Positions 5,571 to 62,503 of a stretch of DNA of 64,000 nt are shown piece after piece. The DNA comes from Chrysoperla carnea (Eukaryota; Arthropoda; Insecta; Neuroptera; Chrysopidae). The notes beneath the pieces are model-generated. The model saw only the letters and a list, made by a program, of their open reading frames with translations. It did not search any database and had not been told where the DNA came from. The first letter of the stretch is position 1. Every line of letters starts with the position of its first letter. Both the position numbers and the translations under genes were made by a program. Location: positions 6,896,935 to 6,960,934 of the forward strand of contig NC_058338.1 of assembly GCF_905475395.1 (NCBI RefSeq), read 5' to 3'.

Positions 5571-6860
5571 GATGTTCACGATATACGACACGAAAGATTA
5601 CTACTAAATGGCTTGATTTTAACAAAAATTTTTTTTTAATAGTAGATGGATAGTTGGCTGTACATTTTAAAATTATTTTCGTATAATTTTTTAAGTTTTG
5701 ACCTATATCTTGCGTTCTATTCATTCAAATTTGATTATTTTGATATCGTTAGACTGGTCTGCGTTTTATCTTCAATCCAAGTACACGCTACATTGATAGA
5801 AAAAAGTTATTCGTGTTCAAAATCAAAAAATGTGTGACACCTCAGTCGTGTTATATATACGCGACTGTGACTATCTAAGAGTGACTATCTCTCTTTACTA
5901 ACATGACGTAAAAAAAAAACAAACGATTTCATAATCAAAACTGTCTATACATGGTATTTCAACAAATAATTCAATTAATTGGTTATCACTTGTTAAAAAA
6001 ATTTTTGATTCTTTTTTTAAAACAATAAAATTTCATTTTAGTGCTGATAATTTGAAATTCTAAATCAAAAACAATGAAAATATATATTTAAAAGAATTTT
6101 ATTAATTGTATTATACTTTATACCGTCTTAAAATTAAATAAATTTGGGGTAAAAAACAAAACTAAAATATTACAAAATTATTATTAATATTGTATATTTT
6201 TATCTATATACAAGAAAAATATATTGTTAAATCTTTTAAAAAAGAAACCTTACAAAACTGAATTAAGTCTGATGATTCACCTTATATTGATAAATTTTTT
6301 AGGTAATTTTTTTAGGTATTTTTTAGAAAGAGAATAAAGTTATTTATCATTGTTAATGTAACAATAAGATAATTTTGGGCAAAATTTTCATTGATCCAAA
6401 AAGATTTTCAAAATTTGTTGCTAAAAAAACTATCAACTTTAAAATCGAAAAAGAAAAAAAGCTATAAAAAATTTTAAAAATGACTATTTTCGCTCTTTTT
6501 TTAAGTTCTCGGCACCTACGCATCCAAATCAGACTTACCAGACGTCAATCGATAGTTTTTTTTTTTGTGATCTATAATTTTCCCATTTAATTTTTGTACC
6601 CTTTTTTGTCTTTTAAACATAAAAACTATGTTTCTTGGCTTGTTTTCTTTGATATCAGAGTATTTTTTGTTTTCTGATAGCAATCTTGTCAAATTTAACA
6701 TCCGTAGATTAATTGCATTATAAGTTGAAGCGCGTGGTAAACAATTTGCAAATTTTTAACTGGTATTTAGTACACAATAAAATATATTTACATCCAATAA
6801 TAATAATTAAAACAATCCATTGTGGATATGACCGTTAGGAATCGGACCAATAATTTCTTC
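5571..6860. other. Intergenic AT-rich sequence with a family A terminus
   Basis: 5935-5998 carries the terminal block of family A in plus orientation (a TCTATACATGGTATTTCAAC block followed by CACTTGTT). The remainder is AT-rich, with long A and T runs. Its short ORFs show no recognisable product. Confidence 0.5.
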
Positions 6861-7640
6861 GTCATAAAGTTAAAAAATTTGATTTTCTTGACAACATAGG
6901 CAAATTTAATCCGATCTTATTGGATTTTTTTTTTAAACCCACTATTTTTGGGTAATTCTTTTCAGCTGTGATGTCAATTTTACCCTAGCTATCACCTATG
7001 TACTTAATTCCGGGACCATGACACCACATTCTTGAAACCTATTAGAGCTAGGTTAATTTTGATCTCAAATTTGAAAAGTATGGCCCAAATTTAGTAGGAT
7101 TACATACTTGGTTTATCAAAATTGGATAAAATTTGAATGTGATAGAGCAAAATTAAATTTTTTGGATTTTGATGACGTCATAAAGTTAAAAAATTTAATT
7201 CTTTTGATAACACAGGCAAATTTAATCCGATCTTATTGGAATTTTTTTTGAAACCCACTAATTTTGGGTCATTCTTTTCAGCTGTGATGTCAGTTTTACC
7301 CTAGCTATCACCTATGAACTTAATTCCGGGACCATGACACCACATTCTTAAAACCTATTAGAGCTAAGTTAATTTTGATCTCAAATTTGAAAAGTATGAC
7401 CAAAATTTAGTAGGATTACATACTTGGTTTATCCAAATTGGATAAAATTTAGATGTGATAGAGCAAAATTAAATTTTTTGGATTTTGATGACGTCATAAA
7501 GTTAAAAAATTTGATTTTTTTGACAACATAGGCAAATTTAATCCGATCTTATTGGAATTTTTTTTGAAACCCACTAATTTTGGGTCATTCTTTTCAGCTG
7601 TGATGTCAATTTTTCGCTAGCTATCACTTATGTGCCTAAT
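6861..7640. repeat. Tandem array of a 316-bp satellite-like repeat (about 2.5 copies)
   Basis: The phrase GTCATAAAGTTAAAAAATTT starts at 6861, 7177 and 7493, an exact 316-bp period twice. Copies share many further blocks, for example TCCGATCTTATTGGA, TTTTCAGCTGTGATGTCA and TAATTCCGGGACCATGACAC. The junction carries a TGACGTCA palindrome (7173-7180 and 7489-7496), lost in the first copy. The array lies just upstream of the NRF-6-like promoter. The same monomer recurs, with the same period, at 14822-15315. Confidence 0.9.
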
Positions 7641-7654
7641 TCCGGGATTAACCC

Positions 7655-8006: not shown

Positions 8007-8203
8007 ATATAATACAACCATCATACATAGGACAAGACACACGAACAGACATCAAAACATATTCTTTTTTAATTTAATATTAATCACATTTAATATTGAA
8101 TTAAATCTTTTACATATAAGCATGTTTGATTGATTTTAAATGATCGATTGATGTTTGAGTTTTTGTTTTGTTGATTAATTTAATTTAAAAATATATCAAA
8201 AAA

Positions 8204-11200
8204 ATGCATTTATTACAAATATTATTGATATTAATTGTAAATTTAATTTATTGTGCTTTAACAATTGATAGTAATGTGAATAATAATGATTCGTTGTTGA
8301 TTTTAAGTAATTTAAAGGATAATAATAATAATGTGAAAAATAATCATGAAAATCTTGATTTATCACGGCAATCAAAACATTTATTGATTAGTGATGATCC
8401 ATCATCAACTATTATTGTACCATCATCAATAATGGATACAAATTTGGGTGCGATTGTTGATACAAATGGTGAGTTTATTTATTTTTTTTAAATATTTTAT
8501 TTGATTAGGGGAAGGTGGTCTAAAATGATCCCTTTAAGAAAAAATGTAATTTATAGCTAAACTATTCCACATATGTACAACGTCGAAATATTTTCGAGTT
8601 CTTTATTCAAATTTTACAATATTGGTATGTAAATTTCTTTTGATCTGTTCAAATTTGTAGAAGTATTTGATATTTCTCAAAAGGGATCGTTTTGATCGCC
8701 CTTATAAGGATAGTGGGTAAAATGATCCCATTGCATTTTTTATCAAACAGTTCATTTTATCTATTATAATCTATTATACATAAAAGTACATTTTATCTAT
8801 TATAATTTTACACACAAAATAGGGATCATTTTAGCCTATATAAATGGGATCATTTTACCTGTAACGACATATTTGAATTTCGTGTTATTATACGCTTATG
8901 AAAATGTGTTATAACGAACGTTTGAACGATTAATTTGCTTGCGCGGAAACCATCTATCGATAAATACACTAGAAGGCTTGAATGGTTTACTTAAAACAAC
9001 GAGGGATCATTTTACACTGAGGGATCATTATAGACAACTTTTCCTTATTCTTTTATGAATTCAATAAATTTTCGAAATGTGTTAAGAATTAAGAATTTAC
9101 TAAGAATATCAATTTTTCGCAAAACAAATTTAATAGTACAATAAAATTTAATTCTAAAAGGAAAAAAGTGTTGCATCTTTATTAGGCTGTAACAACTTCG
9201 TACCGAAAAGTCGACTAAAATCGATAAAACTGAGTATCAAGTAGTTTAAGCTAAGACTCATTATCTTTGCACTTCGAAGGTTAACTTTCTCGAAATTCGA
9301 CAACTTTGAAATACAAACGAACAATTTTTCCAATACAATCATCTGCAAACAATTACGAATGAGCTTTTAAATTGAGATGGTGAAGTTTCTTGAGCCCCTT
9401 CTATCTCAGAAACCTTTAAAGGATATACGAATCTTTTTTCTGAAACAATCAACTGTAAACGATTTGGAATCGATTAAGCTAGAAAAGTTCCATGTCGTGT
9501 CAGGTTCATAATTTAAAAATATCACCAATAATTAATCAATATACCATTGATTTTTCAACGAGTATTCATCTCGTTAGTTCGTTAAATATTATTTGCATAC
9601 GGTTTGAGAAAGAGCTAGAAATGAATCAATGCTAATTATAATTGTTTTTTATTGGTGAGACAATTATACAAAGTTGATATATCTCATTATTTTCCCACTA
9701 ATTATCTTTAATTAATAATTTTATAGCTTTTAATAATTCACATCGCCATTTTAATAATATTACAAAATCTATTGATATTTATGTAATATAATAAGATTAA
9801 ATCTCTGAAAGTAGGCATTTTTATTTATTTCTATTTATCGTTATTAAATTTTTTCCTACCATAACTTAAATTTCCCATGAATATACTATTAATAGAATTT
9901 ATTATTTATTGAAAAATTAATTATTAAAAGAACTAGTGAAAATAAACAATTGACTGAGTTAATTCTTGAAATATGGTATATTCGCACCGTGTGTGAGTTT
10001 TATTGGAAGCGTTTCCATATGGTAACGATACACTACTTTAATTATAGAATTGTATGGATACATATATAATTGTATAGATTGCATTTATGACTTACATTGA
10101 AAATTTAATATATTGTCTAACAAATTTTAATAAATAATTATGATAATTTACATTTGAAAAATAATATTTGTGCAATTTGATTTTTTATTTTCACAATTTT
10201 GAATGCATTAAGTTTAATTATGTGTTTTTCAATAATTTTAATTTGACATTTGCTATAACATTAACATGTAAAGAATTGCAAATTAGTCATAACAGCCTCT
10301 TTTATTGCGAAAATTTTTCACTGGAAATGCTGGCATTGATTTTATTGTCCCTACCATGACTACGCACACAACGAATACGCTAGAATTATTGAAATATATA
10401 GGATATATGTATATAAAATTTTCACAAAATACGTTTATAAAAAGATGGTTAATTAATCAATAAAATTTCAAATTTTTTGAAATATTTTCATTTCTGCATA
10501 CTTTTAAAATTGTAAAAAAAAAAAAAAAAAAAAATACATAAAATTAAATTGACTAAAATCAATCTTTAATTCCGTACAAAAAATTTTCCATGGAAATTTT
10601 TCTTAATAATATTTTCAATCTCTAAATTAAGAAACCATTAAAAAAATTGATTTAAAAAAAAAAACTATGACTCTATATTATTATCTAATAAAAAAAAATT
10701 GTTTATTATAGTAAAAATTAATCAAATAATTAAATCTAATAAAATTTAGCAATCATAAAAATATTATTATTTATGATTAATTACAGTAAAAAAATTGACA
10801 CAAAATTATTTAGATTTTATGACCATTGTATTATATTATAAAAAAAAGTGTAAACTTTCTTTATATTTAAGTAAAATTGAAATTAATTATTAATTAATTA
10901 ATTTTTTAAGTAACTTTAGTTATTTAATACATATTACTTAATTTATTAGTATTACCATTGAACTTGGAAACTTGAAATACTATATTTTTATTTGCATTAC
11001 AATAATATATTCATCATTCATAGATGTTTATACTTAAATTAGAGTGCTAACAACATAGTATGCTATCACCTTTTGTCTCTCAATTCATATACAAAGTAAT
11101 TTTTAAAATCTATTTTAAAATGGTTATTAAAAGTGATTAAATTTTTCATGCTTCATAGTCCATGTCAAGGACAACTTAAATCCTTTAAATAACACAATAG

Positions 11201-14200
11201 TTTTATTGTGCTATCCAAGTTTTTAAAACGCTTTTAAAGTATTTAAAAGCTTTAATTAATTTGTGCATAAATACATAAATTCAGAAGATCAATATTTATT
11301 TACATAACCGTTCATTTTTTATATAATTTGTAGATTAATTTCCTATAGGTACTTACTTTTTTAATTGCTGAAACTTGCAACTTCGTTCAAGTTAACTACT
11401 AAATACAAAATTTATTTCACTTGAAAAGTTGCCAATTTGTTTTTTTTTTTTTTTTTTGGAATTGGGTGTTTTTCATATTTGACTGACAATACTTTTGGCT
11501 CAAAATCTGTTCATAAAACTTTATGATATATGATTTATTTAATAAAATGCAACTGTACCTGACACTACATGCAAAAGGAAGTCGTGTTCGAGAATGCTTT
11601 CAAACTTTGAATATCTTCCTCTATGGAGGATTTATAATTTTAAATTGTTTTTGGGGCCAAGTTACATAAAACAAATTATTGGAAATTGGTAAAGAACCTT
11701 AGCATTTTAGAATCAAATTTATTAGAAAAATAAATCGTGACTGACACTATCACCACTTTTAGTTGTAAAATAGTTGTATTTTAAAAGAAACTTTAGAAAT
11801 TAATATTACAGGACACAAGATTTTAACTTAAAAAATATTTTTCAGCTAATTTTTTTAGCGTATCTACCCACGAGCGCAAAATTGTTTAACCGACTTCTGC
11901 CGCAGCCCTTTAAGTAAGCAAACGATCAACGATTAATATATTGACATTTATGTTTAAAAAGAAATTCAACCTTGTTTATGGTTTTCTTGAAAAATTTTAT
12001 CGAAAAAACCTTTTTTTGGGAATAAATTTTACAGTTTTGATAAAATAAATGAAAAATCAAATGATCTTGACCGGCATTTTTTTTCTAAACATACTTACAT
12101 CTATTTCACTTGACTTAAATACGTGATTTGTATTTTTAATTGGAAATTAATTCGTTACTACGTTTTTTTCTACGCCATATCTTTTAAATTTTTTTATTTT
12201 ATTTTAAACAATACATCGTCTAAAACCAAAATAAGACTTTCAAGTTCATTTTGTATTTATGGACCCGACAAAAAAACCTTTTATACATGTACCAAGTGCA
12301 AGGCTTTTTTCAAAACTATTCAAAAATTTAATAAGGTAATTTTAAAATTGTATCTTGAAAAAATAAAGATAATTAATATAAGCAGTATTTAATTTCATTT
12401 CCTAATATTTTCGCGATTGTAAAATATATTGCCTCGCAAAAAAATGATGCACTTAAAGAAATTTTAAAATTTCTATAAATTTCAAACAGATATATCTTGA
12501 CAAAAAATGATTTTCCCAATCGATAAATTCCCAAGCAAAATAAATTATGAAATAAAAAATTGCTAAAAAAAATATGATTTATTATTTTGTCAAGGTTCTG
12601 GGCGCGTGTTAATAAACTTTTATATTAAATTTCAAAATTTAGGTTTATTTCTTATTCTTATAATAAACCAAAACAACTTTTGAAAGATTACAAAATTTCA
12701 TATCTGATAAAAAATTAAATAGTTTTATTAAAAATAAAACGATATTTTCAGGCCAATTATGTTCATAAAAATTTGGTATATGATTTCCAAAAGGATATTA
12801 CTTGAATTTTTATTGTAATATTTAATTTAATTAAGATATTTTACAATACTTTTTATGGAATTTGAAATTATTGTATTTATAAGGTTTTTTTAATTTATAA
12901 ATATTAAATAAAAAAGAGATTATTTTTTGTAATTAATAATTTATACGTGACAAAGGAAATATTAATGTATTGATAAATGAAGTTTGATAAGCGTTAATTA
13001 GTTAAAAACTTATTCACGCGTTAAAAATTATTGAATCTATGAATTGTGTAAATTATTAGTAATATTGATTTTTTATCGAATGCGAATGCAAATGGCCAAG
13101 TACAGCACTTTTTTGCCCCCTACCTCTTTTCACCAATTGTTTCGTTAAATTTTCTTAGTGTTCTTTATTTCTTTATTTCCCTAGTGTATCTCTTTTCTGA
13201 TTTGCATAAAGTACCTAGAAGACTTTTGGGTTATTCTTTGGCAATAACTTTGGGTGAGATTTCGTGATCATTTTACAAAATTACCTCAAAATTGTAGTCA
13301 AACTGGTTTTACGTAATTTATGAAAAATAAGTTATTTTTAGACTAATTTTATTTGTTTTTCTTTCGTAATTAATTCATTATGAATTTACTTTAATATCTT
13401 ATATTTTCTATGTATAGTAATTAAAAATACAATCCTTACATTTAAAATAAAAAATCCATTATAAAATTAAAGCTTACAATAAAACACTTATCAACGAAAA
13501 CTAATTAATTATAATTTTTAATTCGTTTGAGAATCCTTAATAACTCTCTTGATTTAATAATATCTTTAAGTGATCGAATTGTTGTCTTTAATAAGTTATT
13601 TTAATTAATAATTAACAATTATTTTTAAGGGATATCGCAATATTTGGATCGATATTAGTCCATATCTCAAAAACTATTCGACCAGTCATCAAATAAACAC
13701 GATTTTTGAACTTTTTGGGTCAAAATTACCTTATATACTGAGTTTTATCGAAATTGGAGATAAAAAAAATTTTTCGATTTTTTGCAATTTTTAAGGGGTA
13801 CCCCTTTAAAAAAATCGAGAAAATCGCAAAAAAAATTTTTGCTTTGTATTTTGATAAAACTTTGTTTATAGGGTAATTTTGACCCAAAAAGTATAAAAAT
13901 CGGGTTAATTTAATGATTATATGAAGAGTTTCTGAGATATCGCAATATTTGGATCAATTTTAGTCCATATCTCAAAAAGTATTCGACCAGTCAACAAATA
14001 AACCCGATTTTTGAACTTTTTGGGTCAAAATTACCTTATATACTGAGTTTTATCGAAATTGGAGATAAAAAAAATTTTTCGATTTTTTGCAATTTTTTTA
14101 AGGGGTACCCCTTTAAAAAAATCGAGAAAATCGCAAAAAAAATTTTTGCTTTGTATTTTGATAAAACTTTGTATATAGGGTAATTTTGACCCAAAAAGTA

Positions 14201-17200
14201 TAAAAATCGGGTTAATTTAATGATTAGATGAAGAGTTTCTGAGATATCGCAATATTTGGATCGATTTTAGCCCGTATCTCAAAAACTATTCGACCAGTTA
14301 ACAAATAAACACGATTTTTGAATTTTTTGGGTCAAAATTACCTTATATACTGAGTTTTATCGAAATTGGAGATAAAAAAAATTTTTCGATTTTTTGCAAT
14401 TTTCAAATTATAAATTCTAGTCAACAAATTCATTAAATTCATTATTTTTTCGGAGTTCTTTTGCATGTATGAACAATAAACTTAAAATTTATAATTATAA
14501 TAATTTTAATTAACTAATTACAACTTACGTCAATTTAAATTAATTTTTATTTTAGAGTAGGGAAAAACATAAATTGTATGTAAACAATCAGAACTACAAC
14601 ATACAATAGGAAATGTTGAAATTCGGTTCGATATTATCTTGAATAATAATTAAACCTTTTTTCTTGTTTACTTCTTGATACTTGAAAAATTTATTTTATG
14701 TAATTAAATTATTTGTTCATGTTCTTAAAACATTAAAATGTCACCTGCTTATGTTTTTTTTATAATTTAATTATAATTAATATCATGTTGGAAAAATAAT
14801 TTGGTGATAGTGAAAAATTAAATTTTTTAGATTCTGATGACGTCATAAAGTTAAAAAATTTGTTTTTTTCGATAACACAGGCAAATTTGATCCGATCTAA
14901 TTGGAATTTTTTTTGAAACTCACTAATTTTGGGTTATTCTTTTCAGCTGTTATGTCACTTTTCCGCTAGCTATCACTTATATGCTTTATTTCGGGACCAG
15001 GACTCTACATTCTTGAAACCTATTCTAGCTAGGTCGATTTTGATCACAAATTTGAAAAGTATGACCCAAATTTAGTAGGATTACATATTTGATTTATTAA
15101 AATTGGGTAACTTCTGGATTTGATAGGGCAAAACTAAATTTTTTAGATTCTGATGACGTCATAAAGTTAAAAAATTTGTTTTTTTGATAGCACAGGCAAA
15201 TTTCATCCGATCTAAAAGAATTTTTTTTTGAAACCCACTAATTTTGAGTCATTTTTTTTTTCACCTGTTACGTCACTTTTCCGCTAGCTATCACTTATAT
15301 GCTTAATTCCTGGGACAAATTTGAAAATTATGTGCAGTCTTTCAAACTATTATCCTAGCCAAAATGTATGTGTCTATGAAGTAAATTACAAAGTGCTTAT
15401 ATGTAAATTAAAAGTCAATATTGACCTATTGATCTCGTATAAATATTTATCCTAACTTGTCATCACTGTTTTCTTAATTATTAATAATTATTAAAACATA
15501 AAATTAATGATTGATCAAATTAACATCATACAAATTATCCTTGCGAAAATTAATAATCGTAGGCGCAATTATTATTTTTTTTTAAAGGATAATCTTTAAC
15601 CTTAATAAACTTAACTTAACTTAACTAACAAGTTAATTGAATTCCAGTGTATAAGTAATTGTTTTAATCATGACAATTTAAAAGAAAATTAATAAAAAAC
15701 AAGTAAAAACAAACAATTGACTGAGTCAATTGTTGAAATACCATGCATAGACAGTGTTGATGACTCTATCATATTACACATACATACATGTCACACATAC
15801 ATAACTGATATTCCCATAATTACATACTATACAATTTTCGCCTAATTTGCACCCTCACGGGTAAACGTCGATATTTACGAAAAAATGTTTCGAGCAGAAG
15901 TTGGTTATTTTTTTATAAGGAATATTTTTTACATTTAATGTTTTTACGTGTTAAGCACGCTATAAACATTTCAGCTTGATATCTCTTTTAGTTTTTGAGT
16001 AATCGTGATGACAGACGGACAGACGACAGACGACAGACAGACAACCGGAAACGGACTAATTCGGTGATTTTATGAACACCTATACCAAAATTTTGTTCAT
16101 AGCATCAATATTTTTAAGCGTTACAAACTTGGGACTTAACTTAGTATACCTTGGTATATTTCATATACATGGTATAAATACTAAATTTACCAATTTGCAT
16201 ATTAAATTTAACTGTTAATATATATTTACAGAATATAATAAATAATGCATTTTTTTTTGCTGGTAAAATGGGCGTTTTGTTTTTGAATATAATATTCTGA
16301 AGTAATAAATATAATTACAGTTGATTTCAAGTAAGTAATTTGAATAAATTACAAAATTTAATTTGTGATATATTACTTATTTGATGTGTAACAAAAAATA
16401 AGTAATAAAACAATTCAACCAGCAATATATAATATAATTTCACTTTTTAATTATCCGATAGATAGTTTATTATTTTTATCCCGAAAAATGAAATAAAATA
16501 TTTTATAGTATCAAGGTTTTGAGGTGTCTACAAGGATTGAATAATACTAGAAATTTTAATAAAACTTTATAAATACATTTTTTGATTTGCTTTGTAATCA
16601 AGTAATGCGTTATTTTTAGCTTTACAATACCACGTAACTACAAAAATATATAATATATTGTGTGCAAGTGCTGCTTATAAATTTGATAATATAGATATCG
16701 CTCTTCAATCATTAATAATCTAACTATAGTCGTCCCTGTTCAGCAAATGATGGATATTCGATGAACTCATAATTAAATTAAAATTTTGTTTTTATATCAT
16801 CGACAACCTTATATTTTTATGGTATTATTATAAACTACAGGATTGTCTAAATATTTTAGATAGTTTTTTTATCACACTCTCTATATTTTTTGATATAGAA
16901 ATATCCAATTGAAAATGATAAGCTATATGATTCATCATTTTTCAGCCAACTTAGGACGATAAAATAATATTAAAAAGCTCGATGACCTAAGAATTTTTTG
17001 TGATAATGTTTCTAAAGGCCTTATCCACCATGGTCTGTTTTTATTTATTTTATTTATTATTACACCATTTTAATTAGATATTAATGTTGGTTTTTAACCA
17101 CAATTTAACACTATTTATTATATGTGTTATGGGTTAAATATGATTGAGGCTAGAATTTGTTGTTTTATAATGAAATTAATTTTCTAAATTTTGTAATCAT

Positions 17201-20200: not shown

Positions 20201-23200
20201 TAACTTTATATGATGTAAATTAATACATAAGTATACTTACCTTATATAAAAATTTATTGTGGAAATTAACTGAAAATTTGGTTATCCCTTTTATACAGGG
20301 TGAATACTTAAGTTAAGAATGTATAGATGAAATATACATAGTATATTAAGTTGAGTCCCAAGTTTGTAACGCTAAAAAGAATTCATGCTACGAAAAAAAT
20401 TTTGGTATAGGTGTTCATAGTATCATCAAACTAGTCCATTTTTAGTTGTCCGTCCGTCTGTCCGCTCGCCTATCAACTCGATAACTCAAAAACGAAAAAT
20501 GATATCAAGCTGAAATTTTCATAGCGTACTCAGGACATAAAAAGTGAGGTCGAGTTCGTAAATGAGCAACATAGGCCAATTGGATCTTGGGTCCGTAGTA
20601 CCCATTTTGTAAAACGTTAAAGATTAGAGACAAAAGTTTAAATGTAAAAAATGTTTCTTATCAAAAAATAAACAACTTTTGTTTGAAACATTTTTTCATA
20701 AACATCACTGTTTACCCGTGAGGGCGCAAATTAGTATGTATTATATGAGAATATCAGTTATGTATGTGTGACATATATAGGTATATGTGTAATGTGATAG
20801 AGTAATCAACCCTGTCTATACATGGTATTTAAACAATTAACTCAGTCAATTGTTTGTTTTCACTTGTTTATTATAAGGTTTACGAAAAAAAGTTAGTATA
20901 TATAACTGCATGAATGTAGACGAAAAATAAGAATTAATTTTTTCAATATCTGCCTTGATTTTCGAAATATCGAAAGCTAAAAAGTACTTGATCGTACGCG
21001 CGGTGATACATCCGTTAGAAAAGTGAATTATTAAAGAGTGGTCCAACTATATCTAAATAAAATAACAAATTAAAGTAATAAAAAATTATAACAAATATAA
21101 TTTTGACCATAACTTTATTATTAAACGTACGAATTTTTAAAATAAAATTCAATGGTATGACCTTCGAGATGTAATTTTCCATTACTGTAAAAATTCATTA
21201 CACTTAACTATTAACTATAAAAAAAAGAACGTATTTTGTTTGTGTTTTGATGTTTAGACAATATTATTTATAATAATTTATAATATTTAAAAATTATCAA
21301 CACGTTTTTGAGTTATAATGTTTTTGAGAACATCTATTGAATACCAAATCAAAATCGCTTTGTGTTCAATTAATCTTCTTTATTGTAGATTGAAATCAGT
21401 GATTCTACATCTTTTCTTTTATTTATTTTATCTTTAAAATCTTTATAATTTACATGATTTTTGAGATCTACAATTAAGGAAGAACAGCAGTATCGAGGGT
21501 TACAGTTAACCCGTCGGCACTCGAGTTATGAGCATTTTGTTCACGCTTGATTTAAAACATAAAGAACTTTTATTATTACAAGCTTTTATTTATTTTCACC
21601 TGTCCCGTTGACTTTTTGTAATCAAATCTTGCAAGTCAAAGATCCACTTCCCGGGCTCCGATTGAGTTGAAATTTTGCATGCACATTTAGTTTGGATTAC
21701 AATGCATGGTAAGATTGTGGTGTCCTGATTTTCCCATCGCTTCCACTATACTTCCAAATACTTTTTTCCAAATACTTTTTTTGTACAAAAGAGTAGAAAA
21801 TAATTTTATCTATATGTCACTTATGCCCAACTATTTGTAAAAGCTTGAGAAGCTTAATGGCGTTCCGATATTTTCTGCGATAGTTTAAACTCAAAAGTTA
21901 CGAACTTGAGATTCATTTTTGAAGGATACTTGAATTTGAAGGATATATTTAGTTAGGAATAACACAATAAGCATAAATAAATCCTCACATAATTTATAAT
22001 AAATCACTATGAACGTGATTCCTATATTAAATACATCTTATTTCGTTTGAATTCCGCATCTAAGCGACTAAAAACTTGTATTTCATAAAATTTGACCTTT
22101 GACTATAATAAATCCGTTAATATGATTATAAAATCACGAAACCTAAAATAAAAAAAGGTTGATAACTTCTGCTTTAATTTATTTGCAACTGCATGCAAAG
22201 TATTGAAAAAAAATTAACATTTCTGGAAAATTACAAAGAAGTTGAAGAAGAATTTGATTTTAATTGACAATTAATGCGATTATAATTTTGAACTGACTAT
22301 TAAAAAATTTTTACGTAATATTTTTAAGAAAAATAGGTGATTCAACTTTATATGAAACACCAAAATTGTATATCATGCAAAAAATTGAATGCTTATAAAA
22401 ACTATAATTTTATAGTATTACTAGCGGACCCGACAGACGGTGTTCTGTTTCATTCATTTGGTATAAATTTATTAATATCAATACTATGCTTAGCATGCCA
22501 GCTAAACCCATCCGGCTGAACTCATTCAGCTAAACCAATCCTGTCAAATCCAAATTGTACTTCTATCTATTGAACAACCCACAGTCGTACCTTCGGTCTT
22601 TGACCTGGCCTTCGCCCTTTGGAACCTTCGGCAGTAGAGCCCGCTGCGTTCATATATAGCTCTAATAGACGCGTGGAACCCTGAAAAACAGTTGTAATGG
22701 AATCTAAACCACTTGAATACAAACAAACAATTTCATCCAAATCGGTCCATTCATTTGGGAGGAGTACAGTCACCAACATCTACACACTCAAAATATATAT
22801 CATAGATATTACGAGAAGCCGAGAAAGTGTGGGGTATGTAACTTACTGGAGAGGGAGCCAACTGTAATCAGACATTATTCACCAATATATATCAAGATAT
22901 GCTAATTTTAGTCCCAAGTTTGGAACGCTTAAAAATATTGATTATACGAAAAATTTGGTAAAGGTGTTTATAAAATCACCGAAGTTGTCCATTTCCAGTT
23001 GTGCGTCTGTCCGTCTTACCGTTCGTCTGTCACCACGATAACTCAAAAACGAAAAGAAAGTTTAAATTATAGCGTGCCTGATCTTTTGAGTACGTAGGTC
23101 ATCTTGGGTCTGTTGGACAACTTTTGTTTGAAACAATTATCACAAAGCTTTAGTGTTTCCATTTTCCCCAAAAAAAATAAAAGATAAGGAGTTGAAAATT

Positions 23201-26200
23201 TGAAGATAGCTTCCATAAATGATCTTGTAAAAGATTCTCCAAAAACGCAAAAAAATTTCAAGAAAAAATTCGGTTTTAGAAAAATTACGCAAGTTTTCGA
23301 AAAATAAAGCAAATGATGGTCGAAAGGGCCTCGAGAATTGCATTGCCTAGGTGTCTCGATATTGTTAATCCAACCTTGAGTTGGGGATTAAAAATTTGCA
23401 GATAATTTGGGTACAAACATCAAAATCAATAATAATTATTCATATTCGCATAGTAAAAAATCCATTAATCCATTAAAAGTGTTAAAACCATAAATTAATT
23501 TTTTTTTCTTCAATATTTCAGTTTTTTTACCTGCATACTAATAAAAAAAAATCATAAAATATTGAATTTTAATGAAGCAATATTTTTAATTTATTTAACA
23601 ATACTATATTAATAATTAATCATTTATTTTTATACGATACTATCAAAATATGATTGTAAACAAATTTTTTTTTAAATAATTTTTTTTCTTATTTTATTTA
23701 TTTATTTATTTATTTTTTGTTACAGAAACTGATGAATCATTATTAGCATTATTTCAACAGCGGACAATTGAATATGATTTGGTGCGTTATGAAAAGGCAT
23801 TAAATGCTTTGGAAGATGGGACTTGTAAGGAACATTTACAATTTTATATTGAACGTCTATCTGAAGGAACCGATTGGGCATTAAAAAGTAAGTCAATTTT
23901 AATAATAATATCCTTACTATTTTTGATACGAAGGAGCTTTTGATCCGAATGATTCAAAGAATATTTTAGAGTGGGTTAGAAAAAGTTTCACAGAAAGCCA
24001 TTTACCTATCAAATATTGCAGAGTACAATTTATTTTTGAAAAGTCTTTTATCCGGAAAATACTCATGGAAAGTTTAGAATGCTTGTGTAGGATTTAAAAG
24101 ATAAAAAAAAAACCCTGTAGGTATTCCGATTGTAAACAAAATTTATACATCTGATCTAATTTATTAAACCTGTTTGAATTTACATTTTTTATTAATTGAT
24201 TTTTAATATCGAAAGGGAATTTGCATGTAATCGAGGAAATAAAACCAATAAATCAATCTGACTAAGGAATTGACTCCTCGTTAGTTGATTTTTATGGGAA
24301 TCAGTGGAAAATGTTCCAACAAACTATCACACGTATTTTTACGACCAGTATTTCTATTTTTCATCAATTTTAACTTGTTGACTGGACTATGTATGAAAAA
24401 CCGTGAATTTCTCTCCGTGTATACGCTTTTACATAACCGTATATGTTGTGGAATCGTAGAAAATTCATGTAGCATTCTTTAATTAAAGAAAAATTCTTGC
24501 ATGATACACGGATGTGGTTGACCAATCAATTATGATGTAAATAAACATGTATTAAGTCTAGTTTAACTGAAATGGAATCTCCGAACAGATTTTTTACATT
24601 GTCAATATAATTTAATAATTTAGATTCATAATTTATGCGTTAATAAAAATATTTTTTTTTTATTATCTGACATAGGTATGTAAATAATAGCTTATTTTGA
24701 ATTATTATTATATAATATTTTTTAATGTGGTTTTTTCTTGCTTTTTGAAACATTTGCATTGATTTGAAATTGGAAAAATACAGAATTTTTTTAAAAAGTT
24801 GATTATAATTTTTCCACGTTCCAAAATTAATGCAAGACGTAATTTTGATAGAAAACACTGTTTTTTTAATTAAAAATTATAAATTTTTTATTATTAGAGT
24901 TATGGAATACCATATAATGTAAAATTCAAGATCTTGATGACACATTTTCCTTGAACATCTTGTAGAAGAGTCTGGTAAAAATGATCTTAAGTCTTTTTAG
25001 ATTACCTTAAAAATTTTGAATAACATTTCTACTCCATAAAATTATGAATTCAAAATATAAAACAACTCCTTAATTAAAAATTAATTTTTAACTAAATTTG
25101 TTTATAAATTATTACAATTGATTTCGTCAACCGGATGAGTTATACCAAATATTGAGAATAATGGATGTTCATTCTCTGCTAGACAATCAATTTTACGTCA
25201 TACAAATGCAGTTATAATAAATAATTAAATTAATATTCAAATTATGGAAATCGTTTTATTATCTTATTTTGAGCCTTTTTAAAAATAAATCACGCAATTT
25301 TTATGTCAAAGTAGTTAAAAGAGGAATATTTATGACCATAATTTGTGAAGTCGAATACAATTTTGCCTATATAGTATGTTCAGATTTTCAGTTCTCTGAA
25401 GGCCCCTAAAATTAAACTGGTTAATAATGATATAATAATGGACAACTATGCCAAGTTTCATTAAAATTTGAATGCGAAGTCTATTACCGATAGTACTACC
25501 ATAAGGACGTTACCAAAAAAATTAGTGTATGAAGGTGAATTCGGAAAGCTTTTGAAATGAAAATTTAGAGTAAAATTTTTCAATATATACCATAAGTTTT
25601 TGAAATATTGATTGCTAAAGATTTAGAGAAAAATAGAATTTGCAAATTGTCTTAATAATTATTAAAAATTACTACTTAAGTTAATTTAATATTTATTTTT
25701 TAATTCCATTAAAAAAAATATGAAAATTTTCCTTTTTCCAAAAAGGTAGGTATTTTTCACCTCATAAAAAATAACCGCAGAAGATTTAAACGATACTAAA
25801 AATAAACAGAATTAAATTAAAATAAATGATAATTTGATATTTAAAAATTTTAAAATTTACAAAAATAGATATAAAATAAAAACTATAATTGAAACAAATA
25901 TTTAATTTTATTTTTATTCTTATTAATATTAATTAAATAATAAATTGACGTCATGAAAGGATTATTGCATTTTATTATCTAATTATTCATCTTTTTAAAA
26001 TTCATTTAATATGGATATGAGTAGAGTGCTAATTAATTGTAAAAATCACGATATTTTTGGGTTTTCTAGAGAGACATTTTCTGTTTTCTAGAGCTATTCA
26101 TTTTAAAGACGTTTTCTTAGAATTTTCTTTAAATCGTGTATACAGAAATTCTAATTAATGTCCTTTGTAAGCAGGTAAATTTTTATACCATGCATATATG

Positions 26201-29200
26201 TAATATGCAAGGTATACAAGTTTAGTCCCAAGTTTGTAACGCTTAAAAATATTGATGCTATGAACAAAATTTTGGGGTAGGTGTTTATAAAATCACCTAA
26301 TTAGTCCATTTTCGGTTGTCTGTTCGTCTGATCGTCTGTCTGTCAACACGATAACTGAAAAACGAAAAAAGATATCAAGCTGAAATTTTTACAGCGTACT
26401 CAAGACGTAAAAACTGAGGTCGAGTTCGTAAATGAGCAACATAAGTCAATTAAGGTTTTCAGTAATATTATAATCCTAGGACAGTGTACATTTTGTGCAA
26501 TTAATTTGGCAAAGTTATTGCTTTTTCAATTGTAGCACTTTAAAAATTTAAAATCGGAGGCTTAGGCCTCTTTTTTATACATACCATAGAGGTTCCTTAA
26601 CTTCCATATTACCGAAACAAATCTATTTTGTCCAATTTTACCACCTGGCAATAATAAAATTTTATACCTACTATTAATAAGTATAATTTTGATTAATTAA
26701 TCACACGGGTTTGTGGTCTTCATCGATTTCAAATTTTGTAATTATATGTGGAAACAAGAGATATAATAAGTAACTAACATAGTTAATTGTTTAAGCACCC
26801 TAAATTAACTATGTTAGTAACTTATTATATCTCTTTGTTTCCACATATAATTAAAAAAAATTTGAAAAGGATGAAGACCACAAACGCGTGTGATTAATTA
26901 ATCAAAATTATACGAATTGATAAAAATATTTGCGGTTTAATAAATATTTATATTCAATAATTAAAAATTTCAACAAAATTTCCGAAATAAACAAATTGCC
27001 AATTATTATTTCCCACGTTTTTGCTCACGTTTATTAAAAAAAAAAGATGAACTTTCATATTGCCTTATTAAAATTGTTTTGATACTTGAACAAGTAATTT
27101 CAAAAATTTAGTATATGCTTATAGAACAGGCTCTCTGGATGGGGTTGAGTGTGCAAAATATGAGTACCGCATTTTGTCAAGCTTATAGATTAATATTGTG
27201 AATCTTGCCAGAAACCCTTTTTGTTCCAATTTTTGCATACCTCCACAGAAACAGTTAAATGACTTTTTTTTTTAATCAAGTAAAAGTTACTCTAGATTCT
27301 TTGGGTTATATAACGTCAAAAAGACTCTTTGTAATTTTTTCGTAAACTTCTTCGTTTACGAGATATTAACCGTTTATATAATGTTTGGGAAAACTCCAAA
27401 AAGGATATTTTAAAAGCTTAAAAAATGGGGCAAATTTAAATCATTTGTAAATTTATTTTGGGACATTTTCAGATTTTGCTACTATTGCGAATTTTCAATA
27501 AACTGTTATTAAAATAAATAATATAATTAGTAATACCAAAACTATAAAATTATAAGACTTAAATAAATGAGACGACAAACCTTGATTAAAAATGTATTTA
27601 ACCTTTAAAAATAATGCAAATTATAATAATAATAATATATAAAACAATTAATTATTATATTAACAAAACATACAGGGCCGTAGATGAGCACGGGCTGGGG
27701 GTCAATGCAAATATTTTGCTTCGCTTCTAATTTCCGGAGATTTTAAGTTTTTATATTCATTTTTCTTTTACTGGGAGGTTGTTGGTTCGAATCCAGGCAA
27801 TGGAAATGTGATCAATTATTATTAATAGGGCGTTAATGAGGCGTTATAAGAGCGAAGTAATCGACTACACCCACATCATAAAAATTTAATTGTGTATGGA
27901 TGTAGTTTAAAATAAATTTGATAAAGATTTTAAAAAAATAATGACGTGGGTGTCTTCTGTTACAGATAGACATCTGAAAAATGGAGGTTAAACCCCATTA
28001 TTATTATTATATTCATTTATTTGAAGCAAAATGTATATGTTCTTAAATTTCCCAGAGTAAAAGCTTTTAATTTTTGTTCCTCATGAGAAGAATTTTCGCC
28101 ATTACTATTGAAAACATGAACTTAAACGGTAGGATTTTTGAAGTTTATCTGAACGAAATACACACATAGTCATCATCACATCTGATGGCTTCAATGGCAA
28201 AGCCTTGGGTTCGATTCTCGCCCACTTGTATATATATTTATATTAGGTATTCATGCTCAAATTTAATATTTAAAACAACAACAACAAAAAATCTGTTTCC
28301 ATTCCTCTCTGTAAATTCCTGGAATTATTAGTGCAATTATTGAATTGAGAAAAAGGTAATAAAAATCGATTAACTTATAGAAATTATTTACCTATCCACA
28401 AAGGATTATGTACACATTCAATTTGATTTAATGCGGAATGATTCAAAGAACTATTTTAGCAAATGACTTGAGTTTGAACAAATTTATATATTTTGGTACG
28501 GAATAATAAAATAAGAATTTTTGAAAATATAATCGATCGTTTATATTCAATAATCATTTAATAAAAAGTACTAAAAAAACAAATTACTACGATAATATTA
28601 TGAATACATAAGTATTTGTACTTGAGAGAGTTGAGTCTTAAGACCTAGGCTTTACTCGTGCTAGTTGGGTGACACTAGGTATTTTTTTTAATCGAGTTCA
28701 AAAAAAAAAGAAGGTTCTATCTTAGACTGCATGTAATTTTATGTATGTTCACCGATTTCTCCATCAATTGTAAAGCGATTTGGAAAAATTTTTTGTTTAA
28801 ATGTTAATACTATCCAGGCGACTTACATAATAGGTTTTGGTCCACTAGGAATAAATCGGTTGGATAAGAGTTTCTAATGCGTCATCATGATATGTAGATG
28901 ACTTAAGACACAAAGTTATTTTTTATAAAAAATAAGGATTATTATTATTTTTATAATTTTAGTAAAATTAGGCATTCAGTCACGTAACAGCAAACACCAA
29001 TCAGAAAGTATTACGTTTGAACAGTTATTCTTATTGAAGAACGATAGCTCGAGCCGGAAAATTGCTTAGAATAACCAACGCGATTTTACAGATTCTCAGA
29101 AATAAAGAATTTGAAACTAAAGAACTGAAAAAAAGCGTAATTACTCACAGGGAAATTATTGATTTGAGTCGGTACTTTAAAATTATTTTTTACTTTTTTG

Positions 29201-32200
29201 TACAAGTGTTTTTTAGGAGTCGGTTCCATTTTTTTGTAAAAATTTATAATCAATAAATACAATTTATTTTCAATTTACATTTATTTATAATAAACATTTC
29301 ATTGTAACTTCGTGGTAGGTAATCAATTATTTACATATTACATTTTATTGAGCGTCTACAATTTACAAAACAATGTTGGGAAATACAACAAAAACAATCT
29401 GTTTGTCACCTTTTTTCGTACATTCCTCGAATTGCCAATAAATTAAAGCACTCTGTTTGTTCAGAACCTTCAATGAAAAGTTTCGTTGTAAAATCGAAAA
29501 ATCTGTTTCTATTTCTCAATCATTTTGAAAATTTTATGATTTTTTAATTTTTCAAAATTCGAAAAAAAAAAATTATATATGAAATATATCAAGATATACT
29601 AAGTTTAGTCCCAAGTTTGTAAATCTTAAAATATTGATGATACGAACAAAATTTTGGTATAGGTGTTTATAAAATCGATTTCCAATTGTTCTTTCATCTG
29701 TCTGTCAACACGATAACTCAAAAACGAAAAGAGATATCAAGCTGAAACTTTTATAGCGTGCTTATTGCAAAAAATCCGTCTATTATCATCCAGACTCATT
29801 CTGGAACTTGTGTAGGTACTTCTTGTAAAAATCTGCAAGAACCCCCTTATTTAAAACTCAAATATACAGGATATTTGAACAATTATCTGTGTTAGCATAT
29901 GTAATACATAAAATTGAATGAAATTTTTCTTTTTTCAGTGTATGATTCATCAGCAAAAGAAATCGATGGATATTTATCTGGATCACGTTATGAATTTGGT
30001 AATTTTGATGAATGTATTGCAACAGAATATAGACCATCATTTACGCAAGATCAACATCCATTATTTATTGGAGATTTGTCTGAACCGCTATTTAAAGGAC
30101 AATATTGTTTAGCTGATATTACACATAAATCAATTCAATCATTACCACAATCGATTACCACTAAACGTTCGTATAAGGTAAGTTTTTTTTTTTCGTTTCT
30201 TACGAAAACGCAAAGTTTCCATGTTTAGGAGAAGGTGGTCTAAAAATATGAGAGGGTGTCTTCATCTTAAATGCGACACACTGTATAAACCTTTATTTAT
30301 GTAATTTATTAAAGGAATAGATTATGATCGAATGTTTAAAGTCATAAAATGAATTGTTTCTATTTATACAATATAAAGAAATGCATACCGATACGTGCAA
30401 GTGGCCATATTAATTAACACTTCAGTGTGTTATTGAAGAATCCATGATGCATAAATTAATCAATAATTACTGAAGTAATTATGGAATAATGTGAATTATA
30501 CTTGAGTATGAGTCGTATGATTGTTCCAAGGATAATGCCCTCTGATTTTATTTCCGTTTTATCAAAACATAATTTTTTTAAATGTCATTCTTTTAGAAGT
30601 GGATTAAGAAAGATCAACTTTTTAATTCTTTATTTTCAAGTTCTTTATTTCTTACAAGATTATTGAAGTTCTCCAGCTTGAGCTATCGTTGTTAAATAAG
30701 AACGTAGATACAGATACATTAATCAAAAAAGTACTTTTTTAAATCATCCAAGCCTAGTTTTGAAGTTAATTTTCACATTTTATTAGTTTATTGAGAAAGA
30801 AAATTTATTTTGACTAGACAAATTTACATCAACTTCCAGATTTGTTCTATAATTAGCAACCATAAAACTTCAATTAAGTTACCAAAAGCAATAAAATTAT
30901 CTTGTATTGATAATTACTAACTAATAATCATTATTTTTTAGCAATTATATTCATTTTTCTTCATATTCATAAATAATTACAAAAATTACTTTTGTTAAGA
31001 TAAGTAAGTCCACAGGTAATTAAACTTTGTTATACCCCATCGACTTACATGAAATATATATCAAGGTATACTTAATTTAGTCTCGAATTTGTAACGCCTA
31101 AAAATATTGATACTTGCATTTACAAATGACGCCAAAACAAATTATTCTATCATAATATATTTCCTCAAATATTGGAAAAGAAACATGATTTCCAAAATTT
31201 TTACAGCAATTGTTATAATGTTTCTGTAATAGTGGTTGCATAACCCCAATCAAGTTAACTACAACAAATGAATCAGTTTTGTAAATCAACCATAATGAAA
31301 TATTGTCCAGTAAAAGCTGAAGCTTTTAGCCAAAATATTAAAACTTCCTAAAAGCTTCCAATGATTTTGAGCATAATTCACGCTCAGGCATGAAACGAGC
31401 ATTATTCAAATTTTATTTTATAAACTAAAGTTTCTTTTTCTTCTAATTTTTTTTAGGAACGTGCTCGACAAAATACAACAATCCATTGGGGAATTTGTAT
31501 ACCATCGTCGTGTTCATATCAAGATGTTGAAAAGTTCGTAGCCACCATGTTGGATATTAAAGATAGATTTAATGTCTCATTGAACGAAAATTTATGTTAT
31601 GTAGATAAAAAAATTAATCCTACAACTCTCGACATCACTTATGCGTAAGTTAATTTATTTTTGGCAATATTTACATATAAGGCCATTACAAAAGGAGGAG
31701 AGTGCAAGAAGAGGTACTCCCCCCCCCTCTGAAGTGTTATGATATCTTTTATCTTTTAGAATCTTAATTACTTCAAAATACAAATGTAAATTAATCGAAA
31801 AAAACTTATATGATTTATTTATTTTCAGATGTATAATCTTAGGATTTTTATTAATCACAACATTGGCCACTGTTTTCCATGTATGCTGTTTGGAATCATC
31901 GAAAAATGATAAAATTGATAATCTATCAATATTGGAAGAAGTAATTGTATCATTTTCCGTAATGAATAATTTACGTAAAATATTTACATGTAAACAAACA
32001 AATCCACACAATTTAAATTTCATTGGTGGAATACGAACCATTGCTATGTTATTAGTCATTTCTGGACATTCTTTATTATTTACAATGTTTGGACCAATCA
32101 CAAATCAAGACTTTCGATCAGTGGTAAGTAATCGAACTTTGATTACTTTATTTTAATAAAATAAATCAAGTCTTTTTATCCACAACTGCCCTGGCGCTCG

Positions 32201-60904: not shown

Positions 60905-62503
60905 TTTTTTAACAAAATTTAATGTTTTTTTATTCTTTCACCTCCCCAATTTAATAAAAGTTACAAGTTTATAGATTTATATTTTGTCTAAGGTCTTTTG
61001 GAAGCTATAATGAGCCCTTGGATGGGGCTGATGTTGTTTTAGCCGCTGGAAATACATGAAAAATCGTGATAAAATTAGTGAATCAACAACACTAATATTA
61101 CAAAGAGGAAAGATTTTATTTTTGTGTAAGTGAAGTGAAGACTATAACGAAGTTGAAATAGCCCAGAAAAGCGGATGAGTAAATGCTAGTAAATAATAAT
61201 AACGAAAATTGTTTATATAAAAAATGGTGATATATACTTTTTAATACCAATTTTTTTACATAGTTAACACAATTTTATTTTTTAAACTACAAAAGGTAAG
61301 TTTCATTTTGGAACTTTCAAAATGGAATCACAATACAATACAATTTATAATACTGCACGACTTTTATCAACTTTTGTTCAGGAAATAAAGCGAGTCATCC
61401 AAAATTAACGGAAGATTTGAGATTTTTAAAAATGGTAGGTTACACGAAAAAGGTTTTAAAAATAATAATGGTTTAGCAGTTATAGCTCGCAATTTTCGTA
61501 GAAACCATGATCGAAATAAGTTTACAGCCTTATAATTAAAAAAACTGTTTCTTTTTTTAATCACAATTATTTCTTGCGTTAATTTTGAGACATCCTTTAT
61601 TTGAAATTGCACTTTTAAATCAATATTTAATATCCAGACAGTTATCCAAAATTTTTAGAGTTGCCAGAACCAGTGCTGCCAGACCACTTCGACCATAAAA
61701 CGGTAAATAGACGTTTAAAAAATGGTGGATTCGGTAAAAACACGGTAGACTTTTTATTTTTAGATAAATCAAATTTTTACCGAATAAAAAGTTCATCAAA
61801 TTAAATTCAAAATATCCGCCGAGGTGCGAAATGTAGTGGCTTAGCATGATTCTTCATTATTATAAATGTGCTACCTAAATAATAAAAACGGTAAATTTCG
61901 AAGAAAAAACGGGAAATCTGGCAACACTGGTTTGAACTTTGAGTTGAATACAACAAAAGTAGGGCATATCTTCTAACATCTGCGTTGGAACATGAAAAAA
62001 TGTTGCATACATGAAAGAATTCAGTTAAAATGTAAACGCGAGGTGTGCAGTTTAGTTCAATTCGTTCATCGTTGATTTTGATTGGTTTATAAGAAAATTA
62101 TAATTCTTTTAGATAAAAAAAGAGATAAAAAAATCTACGTACAAATCACTGCATGAATGGCCAACTCAGATTTATCTGGGTTCGATTCAAGGTCCAAGTC
62201 CGGAGCATTTCATAATTTTCATAATCCACCCTAATTTAAGTAAAAAAACTTATGTACAATAAGTATATTTTTATATACAGGTTGTCTCAAAAAAATTAAT
62301 AATATTCCTAATGTTAAAAATTTGAGATAAGTTGTACGTTTACAAAATATAATGCCCAAGTTTTAAATTCTTCAATATTATTGAAATATCAACAAAGTTT
62401 GCAGGAAGGAAATTTGTTGCCGTTCAAATTTTTTGATTGTTCCCGATTTTGCCGGTTTGTGGCCACTCTATAGAAGGAACATTTACCAAGGAAACAAAAC
62501 ACT
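60905..62503. other. Intergenic between convergent genes
   Basis: The Gly/Tyr-rich gene and the zinc-finger gene converge here. 62150-62220 holds a tRNA-like head with a B box GGTTCGATTC, possibly a SINE fragment. The rest is AT-rich with no recognised gene. No clear AATAAA for the minus-strand gene was seen near its stop. Confidence 0.4.

What the first reader, a model, noticed from the sequence alone, without database searches (positions are those of the whole stretch)
13631..14405. Satellite whose every monomer is a 300-bp palindrome
The 305-307-bp monomers are not only tandem but individually dyad-symmetric around GGGGTACCCC, with about 140-nt arms (GGGTCAAAATTACC in one arm, GGTAATTTTGACCC in the other). 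Direct tandem repetition plus inverted symmetry means that single strands, or the intron RNA, can fold as a series of long hairpins. This may be a satellite seeded by a foldback transposon, an amplified MITE, or a source of double-stranded RNA for the small-RNA pathways.
Basis: seen in the sequence. Interest (0 to 1): 0.7.

Follow-up and report, generated by a model that had tools for sequence, protein, structure and literature searches.

The report
Palindromic satellite carried by Helitron transposons
The repeat really is a row of 300-base units that each read nearly the same on both strands, and many of its copies elsewhere in this genome sit inside a rolling-circle transposon (Helitron), so it is best read as transposon cargo rather than a hairpin transposon or a proven source of small RNAs.

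Summary
Window 13631-14403 holds 2.5 tandem units of 305-307 bp; each complete unit is an imperfect palindrome with arms of about 139 nt, 76% alike, centred on GGGGTACCCC, far beyond chance (RNA fold z -15). The array is not alone: one 21-base arm word occurs 2732 times in the 559-Mb genome, 0 times in the control.

Its relatives show what it is. Of 47 arrays read with flanks, 22 have the same tail downstream on the array's own strand, ending ...GCGGGCGGGTATCTGCTAG|T where homology stops; 11 have a shared head upstream; 6 have both. This is the anatomy of a non-autonomous Helitron, and Rep/helicase Helitrons exist in this genome. The window's own array has neither end: a standalone or truncated copy in a probable intron.

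A foldback or MITE origin is not supported. Arms do not co-vary within copies, so selection for a hairpin is not seen; small RNAs could not be tested. Helitron-borne satellites and palindromic satellites are each known; the combination appears to be a new variant.

The parts
13631..14403 (+). Array of the 305-307-bp satellite: two full units (13631-13935, 13936-14242) and a half unit (14243-14403); L-R-L-R-L half-units
13662..13940 (.). Palindrome of unit 1; dyad centre GGGGTACCCC at 13795-13804
   Evidence: self-inverse BLAST 76%, RNA fold z -15.2
13967..14247 (.). Palindrome of unit 2; dyad centre at 14102-14111
   Evidence: arms 139 nt, 76% complementary
13622..13630 (+). Last 9 nt of the left flank, identical to the unit just before its dyad centre (phase 159), close to the phase at which the array's right end stops (160); possible trace of an array opened at the palindrome tip (weak, post hoc)
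   Evidence: a match of 9 nt or more in 69 of 5000 random positions
6860..7647 (+). Second satellite (316 bp) without a clear sequence relation to the first, also an imperfect palindrome (68%) centred on TGACGTCA
14788..15316 (+). Second array of the 316-bp satellite, 0.4 kb downstream, about 86% identical to the first
61155..61190 (+). Probable old 3' end of the same kind of Helitron (...CCCAGAAAAGCGGATGAGTAAATGCTAGT)
   Evidence: 80.6% over 36 nt, E 7e-4

Best explanation
The 305-bp palindromic unit is the internal tandem-repeat core of a family of non-autonomous Helitrons (rolling-circle DNA transposons). Shown: many copies elsewhere carry a Helitron-type 3' tail (conserved GC-rich motif, CTAG, next base T) directly downstream on the same strand, and some carry a shared 5' head beginning (A)TCTATATATATAAGAATTC. 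Shown: the genome holds Rep/PIF1-helicase Helitrons with long open frames. Shown: arrays also occur with one Helitron end or with none, and units of one array resemble each other more than units of other arrays. Inferred: Helitron proteins spread the element; arrays then lengthen, shorten and homogenise locally; the window array is such a standalone or end-truncated copy. Inferred: the palindrome arose once, as an inverted duplication of a half-unit of about 150 bp before the arrays spread, and is now decaying rather than being maintained.
For: Of 47 arrays with flanks (L001-L005, L007-L048; L006 dropped as an overlap of L003), 22 have the tail within the 1.2 kb downstream, against 2 of 47 upstream and no inverted match on either side. 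11 have the head upstream; 6 have both ends, 16 tail only, 5 head only, 20 neither. Of 19 tails matched to position 170 or beyond of 182, 12 end CTAG|T and 1 CTGG|T; the sequence after it is non-homologous. 19 of 47 arrays end at unit phase 287-296, and 17 of these 19 are among the 22 with the tail. The exact 29-base tail end occurs 71 times, control 0. A whole element as query (L044:1948-2885) finds array joined to tail at 38 of the 39 other best places (biased, since the query holds the tail). Helitron_like_N: 64 matches, 7 in open frames of 1462 aa; the L058 frame has Helitron_like_N and PIF1 and its element ends AAGCTAG|T. Within-array unit divergence 5.5% (37 pairs), between arrays 11.7% (1616 pairs). 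Consensus arms 110 of 134 complementary (82%), single copies 75.8%.
Against: The window's own array has no Helitron end, and 20 of 47 arrays have none within the flank read. The terminal hairpin is not more stable than shuffles in the four ends folded (z -0.5 to -1.2). The 5' TC after A is seen in 3 of the 5 heads that reach the end (L011, L026, L044, read by eye). No autonomous element with clearly matching ends was found among the two whose 3' ends I read; the better (L059) shares 19 of 22 bases (E 0.04) and ends CTTG, not CTRR. No clean empty site was shown. The flank sample is 40 of 68 C1 clusters plus 7 arrays picked by similarity, not a random sample.
Confidence: 0.85

Rival explanations
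1. A foldback transposon or MITE whose palindromic body was amplified in tandem.
For: Each unit is a 280-bp palindrome, and foldback-derived satellites exist (Tetris, PMC4079207, abstract seen). The window also holds another 250-bp, 87% palindrome at 26672-26922.
Against: No inverted flanks; flanks are a one-sided head and tail of Helitron type in one orientation (tail 22 of 47 downstream, 2 upstream, none inverted). Arrays begin and end at many phases, not at fixed inverted termini.
Confidence: 0.05
2. An ordinary short-array euchromatic satellite, spread by circles or recombination, with the Helitron only a secondary passenger that captured it.
For: 20 of 47 arrays lack Helitron ends in the flank read. 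Best-matching arrays concentrate on one chromosome (30 of 40 scored places on C2, chosen by similarity to a C2 array; 19 of 30 hits of a 67-mer), while exact tails do not (17 of 71 on C2). Units of the L003 array differ by only 0.3%, so amplification can be local and recent.
Against: 19 of 47 arrays end at one phase, 17 of them with the tail, as expected of an element copied as a whole. Origin inside or outside the Helitron is not resolved; 'captured, then carried' fits too.
Confidence: 0.3
3. A source of hairpin RNA and small RNAs, kept for that function.
For: Very stable fold; probable intron of a + strand gene; G-U-compatible mismatches in the consensus stem are 10 on the + transcript and 4 on the -, a weak excess.
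Against: Arms of the same copy pair no better than arms swapped between copies (75.8% against 75.6%); pairing falls from 82% in the consensus to 76% in copies.
Confidence: 0.05

Closest known systems
Oyster Helitron/Helentron-borne satellites (Cg_HINE, Cg170, CgiSat; PMC7492417, PMC8268682, passages read)
   Same: Short arrays scattered genome-wide as the core of non-autonomous rolling-circle elements; element-borne, one-sided and standalone forms side by side
   Different: Oyster monomers mostly 140-180 bp, and the passages read describe no long palindrome in them; Cg_HINE are Helentrons (subterminal inverted repeats), here the 3' end is CTAG|T as in canonical Helitrons
DINE-TR1 of Drosophila (Dias 2015, seen only as a citation; details recalled)
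   Same: Helitron-related element with internal tandem repeats that became satellite-like
   Different: Not compared in sequence
Insect satellites with long intra-monomer palindromes: Tribolium madens TmSat2 (704 bp, ~300-bp inverted segments), T. brevicornis (1061 bp, ~470 bp), Trichogramma brassicae (385 bp, 80 bp) (PMC13081366, passages read)
   Same: Every monomer is a long imperfect palindrome of inverted subunits
   Different: TmSat2 lies in long putative (peri)centromeric regions and the T. brevicornis one is its major satellite; no Helitron link in the passages read; here arrays read are 0.25-5.3 units and dispersed
Tetris foldback and TIR-220 (PMC4079207, abstract)
   Same: Transposon-internal tandem repeats seeding a satellite
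   Different: Repeats lie in terminal inverted repeats of a foldback element; no such ends here
phBglII400 clam satellite (PMC5139131, passages read)
   Same: Array ends map to palindromes (13 of 16 in a 12-bp palindrome, the rest in a 10-bp one)
   Different: Here the excess of ends at the dyad centre is weak (11 of 75, 5.1 expected, P 0.013, post hoc)

Membership tests
Helitron (non-autonomous) | 3' end CTRR | tested here: met
   Of 19 tails matched to position 170 or beyond of 182, 12 end CTAG and 1 CTGG (the other 6 have lost or altered it); homology stops right after the next T
Helitron (non-autonomous) | 5' end TC, insertion between A and T | tested here: inconclusive
   A|TC in 3 of 5 heads that reach the end; T follows CTAG in 12 of 12
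Helitron (non-autonomous) | Short GC-rich hairpin just before the 3' end | tested here: inconclusive
   GCCCAGCAAAGCGGGC motif conserved, but folds of 2 copies and 2 autonomous ends are no better than shuffles
Helitron (non-autonomous) | Autonomous Rep/helicase partner with the same ends in the genome | tested here: inconclusive
   64 Helitron_like_N matches, PIF1 helicase in L058; the two 3' ends read are only partly alike
Helitron (non-autonomous) | No target-site duplication, clean empty site | tested here: inconclusive
   L040 sits at the end of another repeat; joined flanks gave no clean empty site
Foldback transposon / MITE | Terminal inverted repeats bounding the mobile unit | tested here: not met
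   Shared flanks are asymmetric and in one orientation only
Satellite DNA (short-array, dispersed) | Head-to-tail arrays at many loci | tested here: met
   47 arrays of 0.25-5.3 units, median 1.97; 2732 exact word hits
hpRNA / siRNA locus | Small RNAs from the stem | not testable with these tools
   No RNA data held

The most novel reading that the evidence does not exclude
The palindrome is functional for the Helitron's life cycle: hairpins in the single-stranded rolling-circle intermediate pause, switch or stop copying at the palindrome tip. That would create new array ends and tandem copies there, so rolling-circle amplification would favour units of palindromic form. The second satellite in the window, also an inverted dimer but without clear sequence relation, with 3 of the 4 ends of its two window arrays at dyad centres, would be another outcome of the same process (most ends of its other arrays read do not lie there).
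Probability: 0.13. Interest if true: 0.6.

Novelty: new variant of a known kind. Interest (0 to 1): 0.36.

Why it matters
It ties two separately described things, long-palindrome satellites of insects and Helitron-borne satellites, in one family. Helitron-borne, one-sided and end-less copies are all present in one assembly, so the route from transposon core to free satellite can be tested by a tree of units. It also shows that a foldback-looking array need not come from a foldback element.

Tried and rejected
Exact arm word in viral contigs and genome contigs: 0 hits each. 305-bp array against plasmids: none. Arm words in papers: 0. Foldback/MITE ends: not found. Common origin of the 305- and 316-bp units: best local score 32 in direct orientation against a maximum of 30 in 100 single-base shuffles, and 26 inverted against a maximum of 34; borderline, left open. 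Helitron ends on the 316-bp arrays: no flanks shared beyond one 29-nt match among the 8 arrays compared. Compensatory evolution of the stem: none seen (58 units from 32 loci, after dropping units under 78% identity or not covering the arms). Empty site from L040: not clean. Idea that C2 is the X chromosome (a parallel to the Drosophila 1.688 X repeats, recalled; passages of PMC10715201 looked at): the PAX search did not complete, so it is untested. A search for papers with Helitron plus dyad symmetry returned 3, none of them, by title, on palindromic Helitron repeats; that the combination is unreported rests only on the listings and the passages named in Closest known systems.

Full report
What is there. 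Window 13631-14403 is a tandem array of 2.5 units, period 307, 96% matches. Each full unit is an imperfect palindrome: arms of about 139 nt, 76% complementary, meeting at GGGGTACCCC (13795, 14102), with 26-28 nt between successive palindromes. The alignment score of the arms is 109 and 122, against at most 37 and 31 in 500 dinucleotide shuffles each. The single strand folds as one long hairpin (RNA -113.6 kcal/mol, z -15.2; DNA z -12.9).

Surroundings. Candidate exons on the + strand lie at 8189-8491 and 23680-23943 (read by eye), with an NRF domain at 29905-30225 (Pfam, E 8e-9) and an acyltransferase match below cut-off at 31743. The array therefore probably lies in an intron of an NRF-6-like acyltransferase gene; the first two exons have no confident domain match. 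A second satellite of 316 bp occurs at 6860-7647 and 14788-15316. It too is an imperfect palindrome (68%, fold z -5.5).

Genome-wide. The window lies at C2:6896935-6960934 of a 559-Mb assembly of 337 contigs. A 21-base arm word has 2732 exact hits (1329 and 1403 by strand) and 0 in the control. Only the first 100 places are listed, all on C1, in 68 clusters; by my count of that list 59 lie within 2.4-6.1 Mb, 3 between 6.2 and 60 Mb, and 38 from 60.7 to 79.1 Mb. A 67-base word of the window type has 30 hits: C2 19, C3 8, C5 2, C6 1. The best matches to the window array are on C2 in 30 of 40 places, and in 22 of 40 when a C1 element is the query; exact tails are not concentrated there (17 of 71). 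So the distribution is uneven. These samples are partly chosen by similarity, and I draw no conclusion on sex linkage.

What it belongs to. I read flanks of 47 arrays: 40 of the 68 C1 clusters (the 1st-20th and 41st-60th) and 7 (L006 dropped as an overlap of L003). Nineteen arrays end within unit phase 287-296; 17 of these have the shared tail, GGACCTATAGAAAGTTACAATGTCAGCGAGTATCATGGGC... It runs to ...GGAGAAATTGCCCAGCAAAGCGGGCGGGTATCTGCTAG|T, after which copies share nothing. In all, the tail is downstream in 22 of 47, upstream in 2 of 47, with no inverted match. Of 19 tails matched to position 170 or beyond of 182, 12 end CTAG and 1 CTGG. A head beginning TCTATATATATAAGAATTCAAG... lies upstream in 11 of 47; in 3 of the 5 that reach the end it starts with TC after an A. 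Six arrays have both ends; L037 spans about 0.5 kb by the distances, and L044 (1948-2885) is 938 bp. The genome has 64 Helitron_like_N matches, 7 of them in open frames of 1462 aa. One of these, L058, is a Rep/PIF1 protein whose element ends CCCGGGCGAAGCCGGGTTTTTAAGCTAG|T. Another element (L059) ends ACCCGAAGCGGGCGGGTAACAGCTTGT, like the satellite's tail in 19 of 22 bases (E 0.04). CTRR, TC, hairpin and A/T insertion as marks of Helitrons are established knowledge (recalled).

Against this. The hairpin folds are no better than shuffles. No autonomous partner with matching ends was found among the two whose 3' ends I read. No clean empty site was obtained. Twenty of 47 arrays, the window's among them, lack both ends in the flank read.

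How it evolves. Units of one array differ by 5.5% (37 pairs), units of different arrays by 11.7% (1616 pairs), from 58 units at 32 loci. L003 units differ by 0.3%, so arrays expand or homogenise locally. In the unit consensus 110 of 134 arm pairs are complementary (82%), in single copies 75.8%; swapping arms between copies gives 75.6% (sd 0.1). The arms thus mutate about independently: the palindrome is old and is not visibly kept copy by copy. Mismatches in the consensus stem allow G-U pairs 10 times on the + transcript and 4 on the -, a weak excess that I do not rely on.

Where arrays break. Outside the tail junction, 11 of 75 array ends lie within 10 nt of the dyad centre, 5.1 expected, P 0.013; the other dyad centre shows no excess (6 of 75), and the test was chosen after looking. 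The last 9 nt of the window array's left flank equal the unit just before the centre, about the phase at which the right end stops. Array ends in palindromes have been reported for a clam satellite, but not for others in the same paper (PMC5139131, passages).

Compared with what is known. Helitron and Helentron cores made of satellite-like repeats, in element-borne, one-sided and standalone form, are described in oysters (PMC7492417, PMC8268682, PMC12628747; passages). Monomers that are long palindromes are described for Tribolium madens TmSat2, T. brevicornis and Trichogramma (PMC13081366, passages). I found no description of both together in the listings. Verdict: a real, dispersed, Helitron-borne palindromic satellite; a new variant of a known kind, of moderate interest.

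Noticed in passing
window 6860-7647 and 14788-15316: A second tandem family (316 bp, centre TGACGTCA) is also an imperfect palindrome; 279 matches from 40 scored of 2693 candidates, with one array on C3 of about 8 kb. Flanks of 8 arrays share nothing beyond one 29-nt match.
   Followed up: partly
window 26672-26922: A 250-bp spacerless palindrome, 87% self-inverse, perhaps a MITE-like foldback.
   Followed up: no
window 15940-16191, 20319-20581, 22884-23077, 26174-26451, 29574-29764, 44182-44347, 807-965: A dispersed repeat family present at least seven times in the window and in many fetched loci, ending ...ACTAAACTTAGTATACCTTG...GCATGGTATAA; a Helitron (L040) sits at its end.
   Followed up: partly
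G000:C5:68392098, C5:72437775, C5:40863140, C6:6510866, C6:10938690, C6:11121300, C4:19086514: Seven Helitron_like_N matches in open frames of 1462 aa, six of them with the same score: possibly a recently active autonomous Helitron.
   Followed up: partly
G000:C3:3767553-3809834: Seven Helitron_like_N matches, spaced 5.8 kb apart except for one step of 12.7 kb: perhaps a tandem array of whole Helitron-like elements.
   Followed up: no
window 39574-40740: Open frame with acidic 36-residue repeats (108-bp tandem repeat at 39725-39973).
   Followed up: no
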